Source of the DNA: Cellvibrio sp. OA-2007
GTDB lineage: Bacteria > Pseudomonadota > Gammaproteobacteria > Pseudomonadales > Cellvibrionaceae
DNA length: 64,000 nt
Direction: 5' to 3'
Assembly (NCBI RefSeq): GCF_000953825.1
Contig: NZ_BBUL01000080.1
Location: 1 to 64,000, forward strand
Positions 14,841 through 22,424 of the stretch are shown in pieces. The translations under genes and the position numbers were made by a program. Within the stretch, counting starts at the first letter, position 1, and each line of letters starts with the position of its first letter. Under the pieces are notes generated by a model. It was given only the letters and a program-made list of their open reading frames with translations, did no database searches and was not told the DNA's origin.

Positions 14841-17183
14841 TTAATTACACGCCGAACCGCTCACTACAGGAATTTCTGCTGTGCCTGAGTGAGTGCCCTG
14901 GAAGCCGAACTCAACCGATTGCCCCGGTTGAATGGTGCTGTTCCAACTCAGGCCAGATGCAGAGTAAGGATTGTTGCCGCTGACCGTTGCATTCCAAGTG
15001 CCGCTCAGGCGGGTATTGCCTGCGTAAGTCCAACTCACATTCCAGCCGTTGATTGCGCTGCTGCCTTTGTTGGTGATGCGGATCGCGCCGGTAAACCCCG
15101 AACCCCAGTTATTGCTAATCACATAGCTGCAGTTGCCCGCTGCGGTTGCTGTACTGGATGCGACACTGGATGTTGCGCGGCTACTGGCAGGCAATGAGCT
15201 GGCCGGAGTCGAGCTGGGCGCAACTGAACTGGCCGGGGTTGAGCTCACAGCGGTGCTGCTGCGCGATGAACTGCTGCTAGACGAGCTGCTAACCGGTACG
15301 CTGGCATTGGGGTTGGTGCCGACAAAATACAGGTCGGGTGCTGGTGGTGTTGCCATGCCATCACCGAGGAAAAAGCTGGTGTGTGGCGGTTGGTTGTAGC
15401 CCACGTTTTGCCAGGCGATGGCGGTGCGGTATTGGGTGTCGTGCATCAGCGTGCGCAGCTTGTGGCTGGTGACATGGGGGGTGGCAAAAATCAGTAGCTG
15501 GCTGTTGTTTTCGTGGCGCCAGATCACCTCTTCGCGCCAGTCACCGAGGATATCAGCGGACAGACCGGGGGTCGCTTTAGTGCCGTTGTTGGAGGCGGCG
15601 CCGTAGTTGTAAGCGGTGAGCAGGCGCGAGCTGTTATTGCTGGCGTAATTCCACCTATCGATCATGGTGTTGTTGAGCTGCTCGCGCAGCAGATCGCCAT
15701 CCCACCAGGCGGCAAAATTAATCGACGCTGGTTTGCTGCTGGTGATCTGGTTGCCGGTCGCACTGTTGATGCCGCCTGCACTCGCCCAGCTTTCAGCACC
15801 GGGGGTGCGCGGGTCTATATCCATTATCACGCCGCGGCCAATATCGCCGCCGCCCTGAAAGCTCCAGATAATCTGACCGGTTTTCGCGTCGTGCATTTCC
15901 ACCCCGTGGTTGCCGTAACTGGAGGGCGACTCATGCACCATAAACACTTCCAGACCGGGGCGATTGGGCAGGAAGTCGGAGAGATGCAGCGCATCGCCGT
16001 GACCCAAGCCAGTGGAGTACAACAGAGTGCCGTTGTCGTTGATAGTGGCGGCGCCAAAGACGATTTCGTCTTTGCCGTCCTGATCCACATCGCCCACCGT
16101 GAGCGAGTGTGCGCCCTGACCGGCAGCGGCGCCATTGCCGCTGGAGTTACTATCAAAGGTCCAGCGACGGGTGAGCTGGCCGTTGCGCCAATCCCAGGCG
16201 ACCAGCACGGCGCGGGTGTAGTAGCCGCGGGAAAATATCAAACTGGGGCGGCTGCCGTCCAAATAGGCAACACCGGCAAGGAAACGGTCGACACGGTTGC
16301 CGTAGTTATCGCCCCAACTGCTGACGGTACCGCGTGCGGGTAGATAGTCGGTCGTCGCCATTGCCACACCGGTTTGGCCGTTAAAAACAGTGAGATATTC
16401 CGGGCCTGAAAGGATATAACCGGCAGAGGTGCGGTAGTCGGTATTGGCATTGCTGCCGCCGAGCACTGTGCCTGCGGCATCGCGGGTGCCCGGCGCGGTT
16501 TTCATCGCCACTTCGGCTTTGCCGTCGCCATCCAGGTCGTACACCATAAACTGGGTGTAATGGGCGCCAGCGCGGATGTTTTTGCCCAGGTCGATGCGCC
16601 AGAGTTGGGTGCCATCCATCTCATAAGCATCGATAAACACATTGCCGGTATAGCCGGATTGGGAGTTGTCCTTGGCGTTGGATGGATCCCATTTGACGAC
16701 AATTTCATACTGACCATCGCCATCCAAATCACCCACACTCAGGTCATTCGGCGAATAGGTATAGGCCTCGCCACTCGGTGTAGTACCGCCATTAGGGCGA
16801 TTGAGGTTAATGGTCAGATAAGGGTTCGCCCAAGTCGCTTTGGCGGCGTTCGCTGCCAGCTCGACGCCATTCACTACTGCACGCACGGTGTAAGCCGCGC
16901 TGGTAGTGCCGCTGCTATCCAGAAAGTTGGTGCTATTGGTAATGGGTGATGCAGTGATTTTGCTGCCGTTGCGATAGACGTTAAAGCTCACGTTGGATGG
17001 ATCATCACCCAGCATGCGCCAGCTGATCAGCACACCGCTGCCAGAGGGCAGCGCAACCACACCTCGGTCGAGGTATTCGGCTTGGCGCGCGGCAAAGCTA
17101 CTGAAACTGGCGAGGCTGAGGCCGACACAAAAACACGCTAACAGGGTTTTGCGCAGCCGTGGCTGCAAAGAGAATCTGCTCAT
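14841..17183 (-). CDS. Rhamnogalacturonan lyase (PL11) with CBM2
   Basis: A 780-residue secreted enzyme. A signal peptide (to about FAARQ, residue 33) is followed by a short N-terminal beta domain with the AEYLDRGVVAL start typical of family PL11. The large beta-propeller has repeated Asp-rich calcium sites (DLDGDGQYE, DLDGDGKAE, DVDQDGKDE). A Ser/Pro/Ala-rich linker (about residues 630-683) leads to a C-terminal CBM2 with two conserved tryptophans (NNWGSG, INGWNVSW) and the bracketing cysteines. It should cleave the rhamnose-galacturonate backbone of pectin while the CBM anchors it to cellulose or similar polymers. The linker style is characteristic of Cellvibrio. Confidence 0.95.
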   Translation of the reverse strand: MSRFSLQPRLRKTLLACFCVGLSLASFSSFAARQAEYLDRGVVALPSGSGVLISWRMLGDDPSNVSFNVYRNGSKITASPITNSTNFLDSSGTTSAAYTVRAVVNGVELAANAAKATWANPYLTINLNRPNGGTTPSGEAYTYSPNDLSVGDLDGDGQYEIVVKWDPSNAKDNSQSGYTGNVFIDAYEMDGTQLWRIDLGKNIRAGAHYTQFMVYDLDGDGKAEVAMKTAPGTRDAAGTVLGGSNANTDYRTSAGYILSGPEYLTVFNGQTGVAMATTDYLPARGTVSSWGDNYGNRVDRFLAGVAYLDGSRPSLIFSRGYYTRAVLVAWDWRNGQLTRRWTFDSNSSGNGAAAGQGAHSLTVGDVDQDGKDEIVFGAATINDNGTLLYSTGLGHGDALHLSDFLPNRPGLEVFMVHESPSSYGNHGVEMHDAKTGQIIWSFQGGGDIGRGVIMDIDPRTPGAESWASAGGINSATGNQITSSKPASINFAAWWDGDLLREQLNNTMIDRWNYASNNSSRLLTAYNYGAASNNGTKATPGLSADILGDWREEVIWRHENNSQLLIFATPHVTSHKLRTLMHDTQYRTAIAWQNVGYNQPPHTSFFLGDGMATPPAPDLYFVGTNPNASVPVSSSSSSSSSRSSTAVSSTPASSVAPSSTPASSLPASSRATSSVASSTATAAGNCSYVISNNWGSGFTGAIRITNKGSSAINGWNVSWTYAGNTRLSGTWNATVSGNNPYSASGLSWNSTIQPGQSVEFGFQGTHSGTAEIPVVSGSACN

Positions 17184-17505
17184 AGTGGTTATCTCGTTAT
17201 TCGATGAGTAAGGCAGGCCCGAGCGCCAGACATAGCAAACCTGTCATGCGCGCCGGAGCCGCGTTTATTTGGGTGTTACCGAATGCCGTTAGGTTCAGCT
17301 ACAACTGATTATTGGAATTATTGTGATTGTTAGCCTGCTGGAGAAAACCGGTACGTTGCCGGAAGCGGGTGAGAGCGATAATATAATAAGTATGATTAAT
17401 GAAAAACCAGTGGCGTAATTTTAAACGCCAGATTGGCGAAGTTTTTCTCAATTTTGCGACGTGATGGGAGATTTGCTGTTGGGCATTGCTGCCCAACCCA
17501 AGGGT
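17184..17505. other. 320-base gap upstream of the PL11 lyase gene
   Basis: No convincing gene. A 65-codon minus-strand frame (17299-17496) lacks family features and ribosome site. A perfect hairpin GTTGGGCA-ttgc-TGCCCAAC at 17478-17497 lies just after the XRE gene stop and may end or stabilise that transcript, but it lacks a U-run. The PL11 promoter should lie near 17190-17300. Confidence 0.4.
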
Positions 17506-17997
17506 TCAGGATGAGTGTGCTGTCCATGCGTTAAATTTATCGCGCAGGCGCAATGAGATAGCGGCAAGGTAGGCCACGAACAAAGCCGAGAAAGCGCTCA
17601 AATACAGCGCATCGACGGTGGTTAAACCCAAAAACGGAAACTCTACGCGCGCGACAATAAAGGATGCGGCATAGGCAAAAAGCGCATAGGCAACCAGGAA
17701 TGCCTCATGCCTTATCAGCTCGGGGCGCCCCAAGCGGCTTAAGGACGGCAGCCCCAGAATAAGCCTTACCCATAATGGTCTCTCGTTATACTCATCTGTT
17801 GTGCTGTTCATTGCATATAGCTCCCGTTCCAGTAAGTCGACATTGATAGCAAATGTCGCCGCCAGAGCCCGAAGCGATGCATAACTCACACGATGACCCG
17901 CTTCAACACGCTGAATGGTGCGAAGACTTAAATGAGCCGCTTCAGCAAGTTGTTCCTGCGAAATACCCCTATCTTCTCTAAGTTTCCGAATTAGCAT
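17506..17997 (-). CDS. XRE-family regulator fused to membrane segments
   Basis: A 163-residue protein. Residues 1-60 form a Cro/CI-type helix-turn-helix (LREDRGISQEQLAE, LSLRTIQRVEAG). The C-terminal half holds two or three hydrophobic segments (FLVAYALFAYAASFIV and ALYLSAFSALFVAYLAAI). It is thus probably a membrane-tethered transcription regulator; the signal is unknown. The ATG at 17997 has GGAG six bases upstream and is preferred over a TTG at 18024. A perfect palindrome 46 bases before the start may be its operator. Confidence 0.82.
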   Translation of the reverse strand: MLIRKLREDRGISQEQLAEAAHLSLRTIQRVEAGHRVSYASLRALAATFAINVDLLERELYAMNSTTDEYNERPLWVRLILGLPSLSRLGRPELIRHEAFLVAYALFAYAASFIVARVEFPFLGLTTVDALYLSAFSALFVAYLAAISLRLRDKFNAWTAHSS

Positions 17998-18042
17998 GTC
18001 TATCTCCGGTTGCGACACCCCCAAACTAGACCACTTAAAGCA

Positions 18043-18106: not shown

Positions 18107-18190
18107 TTAATTACCAATATGCGTCGACCAGCGTTCTAACAGATCACTTGGGCATCGATGCCTTTTTCACCTTATTTAGGATAAGTGAGG
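18107..18190 (-). pseudogene. Relic of the 3' end of ppk1
   Basis: This segment aligns with the last 85 or so bases of the intact ppk1 (20156-20240) at roughly three-quarters identity, including a 12-base exact block (TACCAATATGCG) and the aligned TAA stop at 18107. Read on the minus strand it encodes IDAQVI, then a one-base shift, then LLERWSTHIGN-stop. Intact ppk1 ends IDAQAILLERWSAHIGS. It is not translated as such; its upstream part forms the final codons of the AlbA_2 gene. Confidence 0.85.
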
Positions 18191-20047
18191 AGGCGTTTCA
18201 ATTTGTGTAATGTAGGCTTGCTGTGGATGATTGGGTTTAGTTGGGTATTTCAGTTTTAGTTTTTTTTCTTTGATTAAATACTGGAGATGCTTTTTGCGTA
18301 GTGATTCGCCGCTACGATTTAGCAATTTTTCCAGCTCTTCAAGTCGCAGGGAGCGCACTGCACATAAATTCACTATTGTGTCTTGTACTTCAGCGGCGGT
18401 CGCCTTTTTGCGGCTCGCGATAGGTTTTGCGATTGCGAGCAACTGATTTTCCACAGGTCCGGAGCTCAGCAAAGGTCCGGACTCAAGGTTCGGACCTTTG
18501 GCGATTATTCCGGACTCCAATTCGCGATAGGCATCATCCAGGCGTGCTTCGGCCAGAAAATAGACTGTACCACGACCGTTACCTTCTTGATAAATAAGCT
18601 TTTTTTCCACTAAATTAGAAAGTATGGCCGATAGGTCACGCGGGTGGATATTCAGTACCGACATCATGCGCGCATGGTCAATTGTGCGTTCAATATGTGC
18701 AGTCACTAGTATCAAGCGCTCATTTTCAGAAAGCTTATCAAAACAGTCCGCACCTATCTGTTCTCTCAATTCTGACAATACTTTGTTTGGCACCAAACTT
18801 AAGGTATGTAGTTCTAATAAGGTTTGTTCTGAGGGGTCAGATTTTTCTTTCAGTAAGGGTTTGCGCCAATGTTGGCTATTCCAGCCATCAAAAATTTTGG
18901 GTAAACCTGAGCCCGCATTTTCTCCCAAGCCCACATAGCGAAACATGTTTTGTATGGCGCGATTGCGGCAGTCGCTGCTGCCACCCATGACCGCTCCCTC
19001 GATAGGAACACGCATATTGCCAGGGTTTCTAAAGCCAAACATATCGGGGCGTTTAACGACAAGAATAGAGGCTCTGCCGGTGTAATCCGCATGCACCAAA
19101 CAGTTCACAAGGGCTTCACGCAGCGCTTTATGTACCAGGGTATCGTCCTGTCGTTGATCGCCTTCCAGTTTGAACGGAACCTTTAAATCAGCAGTAAGTT
19201 TGCGGATTACTTTTTGATAAAAATCGAACAGGTTTCCCGACCAGCTGCCGTCGGGCACCAAACGATCAATCCAGCGCGCTTCAGTTTTTGCTTCAGGACG
19301 CTCTTGATAGTCGAGCATGTAATTAGGAAAGGCTTCCATAATCGGACGATACTGACCAAACATTAATAACCCTGCACGAGTTAAACCGTTATTGCCTGTT
19401 TCCCTGTCTCGACCCCAGGCGCCAATTTGATATAGGAATTCCTGAGCATCAATTTTGTTCCACGGATGGTCTGGTTGGCGGGCGCTATACATATTGCGAT
19501 AGGCATTAAAACTGTCGATATCTAAATCGCTCATCCCGTAACCTTTCAGAATCTCGGCGTCGCGGCTCTCTTCGATTTGCTCCGCCAACATACGGCGCAC
19601 AGCTTCGCCACTGAGTTTCATGTCGCCACTATTCAGGCGCTTGAAAGTACCGGTCATGGGATTGTTATTCAGGAATACCGGTTTTTGTTTGCGGTTAGCT
19701 TGCGGGACGTGAATTTGAATAAGTGATTTTCCATCCAGTGTAATCACCTTTACCCAGCGCTCGCACAATAGGTTACAGCTAATTTTTTGCGAATTGTTTA
19801 GGCCATTCCAGAGTTCATCCAGTACTTTCTGCGTGTTTTCTACACCTTGAAACTCAAAGGTGCGATCTTGTTTTTCCTTAAGCCCAAGAAAAATATCGCC
19901 GCCTGCTGTGTTGGCAAATGCGCTGTAGGTCTCCCAGATGTCGTTAGGTAACGCACCTTTACCATCGCGGCCTATAGCGAGTTTGCATTCCACATCAACA
20001 CTTTCGCGCATGGCGATAATGTCTTCGAGAGATTCAATATTGAGCAT
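18176..20047 (-). CDS. AlbA_2 / Schlafen-type ATP-binding regulator or defence protein
   Basis: About 623 residues. The N-terminal AlbA_2 domain has RESVDVECKLAIGRDGKG and FANTAGGDIFLGLKE. The middle has a GHKL-like HATPase_c_4 region (REALVNCLVHADY, FRNPGNMR, GENAGSGLPKI), followed by winged-helix segments and a charged C-terminus. This is the COG2865 architecture, whose members are annotated as transcription regulators and sometimes found in defence islands. The ATG at 20047 is chosen because homologous proteins begin close to this motif; neither it nor the ATG at 20134 has a good ribosome site. Its last six codons (TPPHLS) lie in sequence derived from a second ppk1 tail, so the native C-terminus may have been altered. 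Confidence 0.85.
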   Translation of the reverse strand: MLNIESLEDIIAMRESVDVECKLAIGRDGKGALPNDIWETYSAFANTAGGDIFLGLKEKQDRTFEFQGVENTQKVLDELWNGLNNSQKISCNLLCERWVKVITLDGKSLIQIHVPQANRKQKPVFLNNNPMTGTFKRLNSGDMKLSGEAVRRMLAEQIEESRDAEILKGYGMSDLDIDSFNAYRNMYSARQPDHPWNKIDAQEFLYQIGAWGRDRETGNNGLTRAGLLMFGQYRPIMEAFPNYMLDYQERPEAKTEARWIDRLVPDGSWSGNLFDFYQKVIRKLTADLKVPFKLEGDQRQDDTLVHKALREALVNCLVHADYTGRASILVVKRPDMFGFRNPGNMRVPIEGAVMGGSSDCRNRAIQNMFRYVGLGENAGSGLPKIFDGWNSQHWRKPLLKEKSDPSEQTLLELHTLSLVPNKVLSELREQIGADCFDKLSENERLILVTAHIERTIDHARMMSVLNIHPRDLSAILSNLVEKKLIYQEGNGRGTVYFLAEARLDDAYRELESGIIAKGPNLESGPLLSSGPVENQLLAIAKPIASRKKATAAEVQDTIVNLCAVRSLRLEELEKLLNRSGESLRKKHLQYLIKEKKLKLKYPTKPNHPQQAYITQIETPPHLS

Positions 20048-20155
20048 AAATAGATTCAGCTGTGCTTTATCGTTGGCGATAAGGTGCACGCTAGCATAGA
20101 TCCCGCCGTGATGAGTAGGATCTATGCGCAACATCGTGGTTAGGAAGCGATATGA

Positions 20156-22219
20156 TTAACTACCAATATGCGCCGACCAGCGTTCCAGCAGAATGGCTTG
20201 GGCGTCTATTGCATCTTCATCCTTTTGGGGATGAGTGGGGGTGTAGCTGCCGTCTTCCTGCAGCAACCAAGCGTGGGTGTTGTCGCGCAGGTAAAGGGCT
20301 AGGTCTTCGATAATGCGGTCGCGAATTTTTTTGTGTTTGATCGGGAAACAAGTCTCGACCCGGTGAAACATATTGCGCAGCATCCAGTCTGCACTTGAAC
20401 AAAATAATTCGGCGTTGCCATTATTTTCGAAATAAAACACGCGGTGATGTTCCAGAAAACGGCCGATGATCGAGCGCACGCGGATATTGTCGGACATGCC
20501 TGCCACACCGGGGCGCAGTTGGCAGACGCCGCGCACGATCAAATCGATTTGCACTCCCGCTTGTGACGCGGCATAGAGTTCGTTTACCAATTCTTCATCG
20601 TAGAGTGAATTCATTTTGGCAATGATGCGTGCGGGCTTGCCCTGTTCGGCATTTTCTTTTTCGGTGCGGATGCGCTTCACCATGCCTTTGTGCAGGGTGA
20701 AGGGGGCGTACAAAAGCGCATCCATTTTGGAGGCTTTGCCCATGCTCGATAATTGCAAAAAGATGCGGTACACATCTTCGCCGATTTCTTTGTCGCAGGT
20801 GAGCAAACCGTAGTCGGTGTAGAGCTTGCTGGTGCGCATATGGTAGTTGCCGGTGCCCATGTGCACGTAATAGCGCAGCTTGTCTGCTTCGCGGCGCGCT
20901 ACCAAAATCATTTTGGCGTGAGTTTTAAAACCTACAACACCGTAAATCACATGAATGCCGTAGCGCTGCAAGCGCTCGGCGAGTGCCACGTTTTGCTCTT
21001 CATCAAAACGCGCGCGCAACTCCACAATAGCGGTTACTTCTTTGCCCGCTTTAGCGGCGGCGACTAGTGCATCTACAATCGGGGAATTAGTGCCGGTGCG
21101 GTAGAGAGTTTGTTTAATCGCCAATACATGAGGGTCGGCGGCGGCTTCGCGCAAAAAATCCACTACACCTTGAAATGCATCAAAGGGGTGGTGTAGCAGA
21201 ATATCCTGCTTTTGCAGCACCTCAAAATAAGAATTGGTGCGCTTGGGCAGCTTCGGCATGGCCTGTACAAACGGTTTGAAATAATACTGTTGATCTTTAA
21301 TAAGATCGAACAAGTCGCCGTAGCGATTCAAATTGACCGGGCCGTTGATGCGGTATAAATCGCGCTCTTTAATTTCACAGCGCTGTAAGAGAAATTGTTC
21401 CAGTTCGGCGGGGCAGGAATCGGTCAGCTCTAGCCGCACTTCGTCGCCATATTGGCGATAGGCGAGTTCACCCTGTACCGCGCGCAGTAAGTCTTCAGTC
21501 TCTTCTTCGTCGAGAAAAATATCCGAGTTGCGGGTAAGGCGGAACTGATAGCTTTCCATCACCGTCATGCCGACAAAAATTTCGGCCATAAAAAAGTGAA
21601 TGATGGAGGAGACAAACACAAAACAGCGTCCATTGCTGCTCAACTCGGCGGGCAGTTCAATAATGTGCGGTAGCGAGCGCGGTACTTGCACTATGGCGCG
21701 GCCGGAGTTGCGCCCGAAGGCGTCTTTGCCATCCAGCCGGACGATAAAATTCAAACTTTTATTGAGAATGCGTGGAAACGGGTGCGCCGGGTCTAAACCA
21801 ATCGGACTGAGTACGGGTAATACATCGGATAAAAACACCTGCTTGAGGTGTTGGATTTGCGCCTCTGTCCACTCTTCACGGCGCAGGATATGAATGCCGT
21901 GCGCGTGCATTTCCGGCACTATTTCGTTGTTGAGAATGGCATATTGCTCCGCCACTAAGGCGTGGGCGCGCACTGAAATTTCGTTTAGGGTTTGGGTTTG
22001 GGTCAAGCCATCCGGCCCCTGGGTGGGCGGTGCGTTGCGCTCCAGAATTTCAACCAGACCGCCGACGCGCACTTCAAAAAACTCATCGAGGTTGGTGGAA
22101 AAAATGCCTAAGAAGCGCAGCCGCTCCAGCAGTGGCAAGCTGCGATTGTAAGCTTGATGGAGGACACGTTTGTTAAATTCGAGCAGGCTCAGCTCGCGAT
22201 TGAAATAGGCGTTAGACAC
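20156..22219 (-). CDS. ppk1: Polyphosphate kinase 1
   Basis: Makes inorganic polyphosphate from ATP at the inner membrane. The 687-residue length matches E. coli Ppk. The N-terminal NRELSLLEFNKRVL motif, the phosphorylated-histidine segment FKTHAKMILVARR and the second GTGNYHMRTSKLYTD motif of the phospholipase-D-like core are intact. The GTG at 22219 is chosen because GAGGT precedes it and SNAYFNREL follows; an ATG at 22300 would add 27 unlikely residues. The gene is complete even though a relic of its tail exists 2 kb downstream. Confidence 0.96.
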   Translation of the reverse strand: MSNAYFNRELSLLEFNKRVLHQAYNRSLPLLERLRFLGIFSTNLDEFFEVRVGGLVEILERNAPPTQGPDGLTQTQTLNEISVRAHALVAEQYAILNNEIVPEMHAHGIHILRREEWTEAQIQHLKQVFLSDVLPVLSPIGLDPAHPFPRILNKSLNFIVRLDGKDAFGRNSGRAIVQVPRSLPHIIELPAELSSNGRCFVFVSSIIHFFMAEIFVGMTVMESYQFRLTRNSDIFLDEEETEDLLRAVQGELAYRQYGDEVRLELTDSCPAELEQFLLQRCEIKERDLYRINGPVNLNRYGDLFDLIKDQQYYFKPFVQAMPKLPKRTNSYFEVLQKQDILLHHPFDAFQGVVDFLREAAADPHVLAIKQTLYRTGTNSPIVDALVAAAKAGKEVTAIVELRARFDEEQNVALAERLQRYGIHVIYGVVGFKTHAKMILVARREADKLRYYVHMGTGNYHMRTSKLYTDYGLLTCDKEIGEDVYRIFLQLSSMGKASKMDALLYAPFTLHKGMVKRIRTEKENAEQGKPARIIAKMNSLYDEELVNELYAASQAGVQIDLIVRGVCQLRPGVAGMSDNIRVRSIIGRFLEHHRVFYFENNGNAELFCSSADWMLRNMFHRVETCFPIKHKKIRDRIIEDLALYLRDNTHAWLLQEDGSYTPTHPQKDEDAIDAQAILLERWSAHIGS

Positions 22220-22424
22220 CTTGTACCTCGTTAAACTGATTCGTGTGGAGCAATATCGCGCCAGATTATGGCAATTGTGTGACAGAAATAAGACAGCCAA
22301 TGCCCAGTGCTAACACTAGCAAAGTTTTAAGCGTAACGGAGACTTAGTCAAACATGGGAAGTAAAGGAGGAGGGATAGGAAATTATTCGCTCCATTAAAG
22401 GTATTTAACCCGGTGGAAGGGGAG

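What the first reader, a model, noticed from the sequence alone, without database searches (positions are those of the whole stretch)
18107..20240. AlbA_2/Schlafen-type gene flanked by intact and relic ppk1 3' ends
The bases at 18107-18190 align with the last 85 or so bases of intact ppk1 (20156-20240), with the same stop position, but diverge by roughly a quarter and carry a one-base shift. The AlbA_2 gene lies exactly between the two copies, and its own last codons are drawn from the relic. This is the layout left when a mobile or recombining segment enters at the 3' end of a housekeeping gene and supplies a new gene tail. No integrase is visible, so entry may have been by homologous recombination with a related strain. 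The 3' end of ppk1 may be an integration hotspot for defence-type genes.
Basis: partly seen in the sequence, partly recalled or inferred. Interest (0 to 1): 0.72.

Follow-up and report, generated by a model that had tools for sequence, protein, structure and literature searches.

The report
Captured gene flanked by ppk1 ends
A single defence-type gene sits just behind a housekeeping gene, with a decayed second copy of that gene's tail on its far side, which is the scar expected when DNA from a relative is taken up by one-sided recombination, and similar scars were found beside other acquired genes.

Summary
Window 18107-18190 is a decayed second copy of the last 85 bases of ppk1 (20156-20240): 76% identity, same stop position, one-base shift, E 2e-10 in the genome, no third copy. 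The AlbA_2 gene lies between the copies and takes its last four codons and stop from the relic. None of 38 related genomes has a second tail in the 3-15 kb examined. The relic is not a recent copy of the present tail: at 9 of 21 differences it carries the commonest base of 12 genus mates. Best reading: a donor piece with a related ppk1 end and one cargo gene was anchored by homology in ppk1 and joined illegitimately at its other end, leaving the old tail behind. In the window alone an old local duplication is not excluded (codon test P 0.09). Repeats of flanking gene ends were seen by eye at 8 of 69 testable AlbA_2 loci, this one included (prpF, an efflux gene, hsdR and others); in 4 of 6 repeat pairs tested (one beside a Fic gene) there are significantly fewer nonsynonymous differences than expected. 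Fic genes show such repeats too, so they are not clearly AlbA_2-specific. The ppk1 hotspot idea is not supported.

The parts
20156..22300 (-). ppk1, intact polyphosphate kinase ORF (true start probably somewhat inside the ORF)
   Evidence: Pfam PP_kinase domains; one match in the genome
20156..20240 (-). intact ppk1 3' end, one member of the repeat
20094..20127 (.). inverted repeat (10-bp perfect stem) shortly behind ppk1, in the leader of the cargo gene
   Evidence: sequence; 20050-20158 folds at -35.1 kcal/mol, z -4.45; among 294 loci found in 5, all fetched from this same place
18176..20050 (-). AlbA_2 / HATPase_c_4 protein (about 624 aa; ORF open from 20134), the inserted cargo
   Evidence: Pfam SLFN_AlbA_2 5.9e-11 and HATPase_c_4 1.7e-8; aligns along its length with relatives
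18107..18190 (-). relic ppk1 3' end, with an in-frame stop and a one-base deletion relative to the intact tail
17506..18024 (-). XRE-type HTH protein ORF of 172 aa, not found behind ppk1 in relatives
   Evidence: Pfam HTH_3; absent; the five homologues of 68% identity or more lie away from ppk1
17184..17422 (-). spacer before the RGL11 gene in which homology with relatives' ppk1-downstream DNA resumes
14841..17183 (-). RGL11 lyase, the next gene after ppk1 in 10 of 18 genus mates

Best explanation
A DNA piece from a related bacterium, carrying a ppk1 3' end and a single AlbA_2 gene behind it, recombined with the resident ppk1 by homology on one side. On the other side it was joined without long homology inside the resident ppk1 tail, about 84 bases before its stop. 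The resident tail was pushed to the far side of the new gene and has since decayed a little. The cargo is a full-length AlbA_2/ATPase gene of a subfamily often found beside type I restriction genes and probably works on its own or as a leftover of such a system. Shown: anatomy, absence from the relatives examined, relic not a recent copy of the present tail, same anatomy at other loci with codon differences that show past selection on both copies in four of six pairs. Inferred: direction of transfer, the one-sided mechanism, and the function of the cargo.
For: Tails homologous with the same stop. Second tail in 0 of 38 related genomes. At 9 of 21 mismatches the relic has the commonest base of 12 genus mates where the intact gene deviates; P 5e-5 for a copy of the present tail that decayed uniformly. 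No identical core (longest exact run 12 nt), and the least conserved part of the relic is the one abutting the cargo, unlike an att core. Same anatomy elsewhere: L190 intact prpF - AlbA_2 - 610-nt prpF tail, 31 synonymous and 13 nonsynonymous differences, pN/pS 0.14, P 5e-10. L259, L185 and L128 give pN/pS 0.27, 0.28 and 0.06 (P 1e-4, 0.01, 1e-4). Published models of this kind: PMC5361080 (passages) and PMC2884548 (passages).
Against: In the window itself the codon test is not significant (13 nonsynonymous, 8 synonymous, pN/pS 0.49, P 0.09), and a tree of the tails does not reject relic plus intact as sisters (p-AU 0.44, with fewer replicates than the program advises), so an old local duplication is not excluded. 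The relic scores higher against the window's own tail (71) than against any relative's (at most 53). No donor genome with ppk1 followed by AlbA_2 was seen. The HTH gene between the relic and the old flank needs a second event or a larger one. L178 shows no significant effect (pN/pS 0.52, P 0.24). The six codon P values are not corrected for number of tests. Competence genes were not examined.
Confidence: 0.66

Rival explanations
1. Insertion with target duplication: the gene entered a staggered break (or came in by copying repair) in the ppk1 tail, which duplicated about 85 bases; both copies then diverged in place.
For: Direct repeat flanking a gene of a subfamily linked to restriction loci, the pattern named 'insertion with long target duplication' in Helicobacter (PMC1643837, PMC3031569, PMC4978471, passages). 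Relic plus intact as sisters not rejected; the relic is nearer to the window's own tail than to any relative's; codon test not significant in the window.
Against: The relic carries the commonest genus base at 9 of 21 differences, so the duplication would have to be old. At L190, L259, L185 and L128 there are significantly fewer nonsynonymous differences than expected, not expected if one copy was dead from the start; at L190 the relic frame is still open over 202 codons, so use of both copies is not excluded there.
Confidence: 0.22
2. Remnant of an integrase-driven island that uses the 3' end of ppk1 as its attachment site and has lost its integrase.
For: Position at a gene 3' end with an intact reading frame restored. 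Such islands do carry AlbA_2 genes: at L234 the flanking repeat is the 3' end of a tRNA-Ala gene.
Against: No integrase-sized ORF other than AlbA_2 between the repeats, no identical core (longest exact run 12 nt), divergence greatest at the cargo-side boundary, no other cargo plus tail repeat at ppk1 among 38 genomes.
Confidence: 0.06
3. The mirror event: AlbA_2 was already behind ppk1, and a later donor piece (second ppk1 tail + HTH gene) was joined at its 3' end, so that the relic is the imported tail.
For: The HTH gene is also foreign at this place and lies on the relic side; the relic interrupts the natural 3' end of AlbA_2.
Against: Neither intermediate was seen in the 18 genus mates examined; the direction cannot be read from about 85 bases.
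Confidence: 0.06

Closest known systems
Homology-facilitated illegitimate recombination, as proposed for T6SS effector-immunity modules in Vibrio (PMC5361080, passages) and discussed for variable segments (PMC2884548, passages)
   Same: Incoming DNA anchored by homology on one side and joined illegitimately on the other; in the Vibrio model old parts, such as a displaced 3' end, stay behind the new cargo
   Different: Here the host gene is a housekeeping gene and the cargo a lone AlbA_2 gene; the event is inferred, not observed
Insertion with long target duplication (Nobusato et al. 2000, seen only as cited in PMC1643837, PMC3031569, PMC4978471)
   Same: Defence-related gene flanked by a direct repeat, single in genomes without the gene (repeat lengths of the published cases not seen)
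   Different: The copies here are 24% diverged, and at four other loci in the pattern of two alleles under selection rather than one dead copy
SLFN_AlbA_2 proteins with RecG-C-like HATPase_c_4 domain (COG2865-like, label recalled)
   Same: Both Pfam domains above cut-off and alignment along the length with relatives
   Different: Stands alone behind ppk1; no hsdM, hsdS or hsdR match in the 64-kb window

Membership tests
Homology-facilitated illegitimate recombination | Cargo adjoins a stretch homologous to the recipient on one side | tested here: met
   ppk1 tail pair
Homology-facilitated illegitimate recombination | Homologous stretch comes from another lineage | tested here: inconclusive
   9 of 21 differences have the commonest genus base in the relic, but codon test P 0.09 and tree unresolved
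Homology-facilitated illegitimate recombination | Second junction with little or no homology | not testable with these tools
   donor sequence unknown
Homology-facilitated illegitimate recombination | DNA uptake route (competence or conjugation) and RecA | not tested
   no search made for com or rec genes
[quoted passage not shown]
   about 85 nt
Insertion with long target duplication | Single copy in genomes without the insert | tested here: met
   second tail in 0 of 38 within 3.1-15 kb; none of these is a close strain
Insertion with long target duplication | The two copies were one sequence at insertion | tested here: inconclusive
   disfavoured; not excluded
Integrase-borne genomic island at a gene 3' end | Integrase gene on the element | tested here: not met
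   between the repeats one search lists AlbA_2 and two antisense ORFs of 102 and 104 aa inside it
Integrase-borne genomic island at a gene 3' end | Identical core at both ends | tested here: not met
   longest exact run 12 nt
SLFN_AlbA_2 family | Pfam PF04326 above the curated cut-off | tested here: met
   43.4 bits, cut-off 25.3
SLFN_AlbA_2 family | Conserved E-x4-E-x-K stretch (its role is recalled) | tested here: met
   E16, E21 and K23 listed as nearly invariant in the 10-sequence alignment
Phage-defence gene | Protects against phage | not testable with these tools
   PADLOC gives only partial matches to pAgo and Aga_SIR2 models (E 5e-10 to 1e-6)

The most novel reading that the evidence does not exclude
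Gene-end relics are a widespread fossil of one-sided homologous capture: accessory single genes arrive with a foreign copy of the neighbouring gene's end, and the codon pattern of the differences between intact and relic ends shows that many 'long target duplications' are two alleles brought together, not a duplicated target.
Probability: 0.38. Interest if true: 0.62.

Novelty: new member of a known kind. Interest (0 to 1): 0.44.

Why it matters
It gives a readable scar of how single defence-type genes can move without integrases or transposases, and a simple codon test (synonymous against nonsynonymous differences between intact and relic gene ends) that can separate import of a foreign gene end from local duplication. 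The test can be run on any set of genomes.

Tried and rejected
The idea that the AlbA_2 gene itself drives the repeats is not supported as specific. With the same test (flanks 700 nt, score >= 50) AlbA_2 genes gave 9 of 69, Fic genes 3 of 39, AAA_15 genes 1 of 20 and distant neighbour genes 2 of 203, these two in one array-like locus; AlbA_2 against Fic plus AAA_15 P 0.19. Six HTH-gene loci gave no repeat above their shuffles. Sorting by eye, at score >= 34-36, put gene ends at 8 of 69 AlbA_2 loci (the window, L190, L185, L178, L195, L224, L128, L130) against 2 of 59 controls (L259, L269): one-sided P 0.08; 0.12 without the window; 0.03 if L269 is not counted. The other AlbA_2 hits were L196 (array), L217 (attC-like by look) and L234 (tRNA 3' end); the other control hits L239 (32-nt hairpin) and L290 (attC-like by look). 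This sorting was made by one reader after seeing the hits. Weak members: L224 (20 coding bases), L195 (48), L130 (both copies are fragments, hsdR by look only), L178 (an integrase gene), L269 (integrase-like by look; no Pfam match).

A first control run was wrong: control ORFs with negative starts gave artefact scores of 1400; one search replaces it. Rows left out: L181 as a copy of L121; L121 and L175 with too short a flank; L255 (one search gave no result); G760, never fetched at length; L075 and L079 with 73 and 0 bases behind ppk1. L061 and L062 had only 3.1 and 4.1 kb. In one search, 12 of the 19 other same-genus tails that reach the gene end were used (seven more divergent ones left out), and the G032 row was cut short by a frameshift. 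Of the Fic and AAA_15 hits 40 and 20 were fetched, chosen by hand from the top of the lists. L195, L224, L130 and L269 had no codon test.

The tree of the tails is uninformative. Sliding identity along ppk1 shows no clear break point. The leader gave only weak matches elsewhere in the genus (best E 0.01). Structure prediction was not run. Paper searches without a direct answer; one search listed two papers that I did not open.
Full report
Observation. The window lies in the same genus as Cellvibrio sp. 79 (record title; contig length and place agree with G022). Along the minus strand the order is ppk1 (20156-22300), AlbA_2 gene (18176-20134), relic (18107-18190), HTH gene (17506-18024), RGL11 lyase (14841-17183). 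The relic aligns with the last 85 bases of ppk1 at 76% identity with the stop in the same place. A search of the 4.6-Mb genome with the relic finds only these two places at E <= 1.

Empty sites. ppk1 was found in 133 of 144 family genomes, the own one included. I fetched the region behind ppk1 for 40 others; 38 could be tested, over 3.1 to 15 kb, and none has a second tail scoring above its shuffle control by more than 10. Of 18 same-genus genomes with usable sequence (of 20), 10 have RGL11 next, 6 have ppx next, G020 has a histidine-biosynthesis gene and G019 a PIN-domain gene. Neither the AlbA_2 nor the HTH protein matches any ORF behind ppk1 in them. So the layout is derived in the window lineage, and ppk1 is not a hotspot in this sample.

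Age and origin of the relic. Relic and intact tail differ at 21 of 86 aligned columns. At 9 the relic has the commonest base of 12 genus mates, at 9 the intact gene has it, at 3 neither. If the relic were a copy of today's tail that decayed evenly, 2.3 would be expected (P 5e-5). So the two lines separated long ago or came from different lineages. The even split suggests that both were working tails for much of that time, but the codon test in the window is weak (13 nonsynonymous, 8 synonymous, P 0.09), the tree is unresolved, and the relic is nearer to the window's own tail than to any relative's. The relic has an in-frame stop and a one-base deletion, so it is dead now as a ppk1 end.

Cargo. 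The protein has SLFN_AlbA_2 and HATPase_c_4 domains, aligns along its length with relatives at 41-72% identity and keeps their strongly conserved residues. Solved relatives by sequence are a 'possible ATP-dependent DNA helicase RecG-related protein' (2kyy, E 2e-4) and an 'uncharacterized protein' (3lmm, E 1e-3). Of 23 subfamily loci (4 to 18 kb each), 10 have a match to type I restriction subunits, two of these to HsdM only; of 47 other AlbA_2 loci, 14 have one. Pfam confirmed hsdM, hsdS and hsdR at L125 and hsdR at L128. The 64-kb window has no such match; the rest of the genome was not searched for them. The simplest view is an orphan accessory gene of such a system.

Generality. I took the 55 PF04326 hits listed for the family genomes plus relatives from order, class and genome contigs, 71 loci of which 69 were testable, and looked for direct repeats on both sides of the gene. 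Nine pass score 50, eleven pass 36. By eye eight of the eleven involve ends of flanking genes. 3' ends: the window (ppk1), L190 (prpF), L185 (outer membrane efflux gene plus neighbour) and L178 (phage-type integrase); the last three named by Pfam. 5' ends: L195 (winged-helix regulator), L224 (nucleotidyltransferase/HEPN gene), L128 (hsdR) and L130 (hsdR by look, both copies fragments). Controls: Fic 3 of 39, AAA_15 1 of 20, distant neighbours 2 of 203. One Fic case is the tail of the next Fic gene (L259) and one an integrase-like tail by look that Pfam does not confirm (L269). AlbA_2 genes show the scar more often than distant neighbours (8 of 69 against at most 1 of 203, P 9e-5; 7 of 68 without the window, P 3e-4), but are not clearly special among accessory genes (P 0.03 to 0.19 depending on the count).

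Codon test. Six repeat pairs were tested. Nonsynonymous differences fall short of expectation at L190 (31 synonymous, 13 nonsynonymous, pN/pS 0.14, P 5e-10), L259 (about 19 and 19, 0.27, P 1e-4), L128 (7 and 2 over 13 codons, 0.06, P 1e-4) and L185 (9 and 7, 0.28, P 0.01), and not significantly at the window (0.49, P 0.09) and L178 (0.52, P 0.24). P values are uncorrected. This is what two alleles of a working gene look like when brought together, and not what a copy dead since its birth would give.

Mechanism and literature. The pattern matches homology-facilitated illegitimate recombination as proposed for effector modules in Vibrio (PMC5361080, passages) and discussed for variable segments (PMC2884548, passages); PMC3240628 was seen only in the search listing. 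It also resembles 'insertion with long target duplication' of restriction genes in Helicobacter, which I saw only as cited in PMC1643837, PMC3031569 and PMC4978471 (passages). Of PMC3784515 I saw the abstract and section list. One search for ppk1 as an insertion site listed nothing to the point, in a library that lacks most subscription journals.

Three statements were mended: the codon result is a shortfall of nonsynonymous changes per site, not always a majority of synonymous ones; L269 is not confirmed as a gene end; L234 is a tRNA-end repeat. For these I lowered the main confidence from 0.68 to 0.66, raised the duplication rival from 0.20 to 0.22, and lowered the novel case from 0.40 to 0.38 and the interest from 0.45 to 0.44.

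Verdict. A real, derived and rather ordinary scar of gene capture, well explained by a known kind of event, with a clear signal at several other loci. Main gaps: no donor, no close strain, direction unresolved, cargo function untested.

Noticed in passing
window 17477-17498: A 22-nt palindrome behind the HTH gene recurs at many places in the genus genomes, often as inverted pairs a few tens of bases apart, like REP elements (label recalled).
   Followed up: partly
L128 6541-7862: An Abi_C gene whose C-terminus matches the end of HsdR, followed by a relic HsdR start, inside a type I restriction locus: several nested gene-end relics.
   Followed up: partly
L080 (G032), ppk1: The ppk1 of the G032 genome is split by a frameshift before its last 118 residues; real or assembly error unknown.
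   Followed up: no
L063 2700-3104 (G019): A PIN-domain gene sits directly behind ppk1 in convergent orientation, without a tail repeat.
   Followed up: partly
L234 3370-3459 and 7382-7426: An AlbA_2 gene lies between repeats of the 3' end of a tRNA-Ala gene, as in islands that enter tRNA genes.
   Followed up: partly
L196 and L217: AlbA_2 genes among repeated elements of about 100-300 nt (L196) or attC-like repeats (L217) that resemble integron cassette arrays (label by look).
   Followed up: no
window 20094-20127: Strong hairpin shortly behind the ppk1 stop with no run of T; z -4.45 for the leader. Perhaps the 3' end signal of ppk1.
   Followed up: partly
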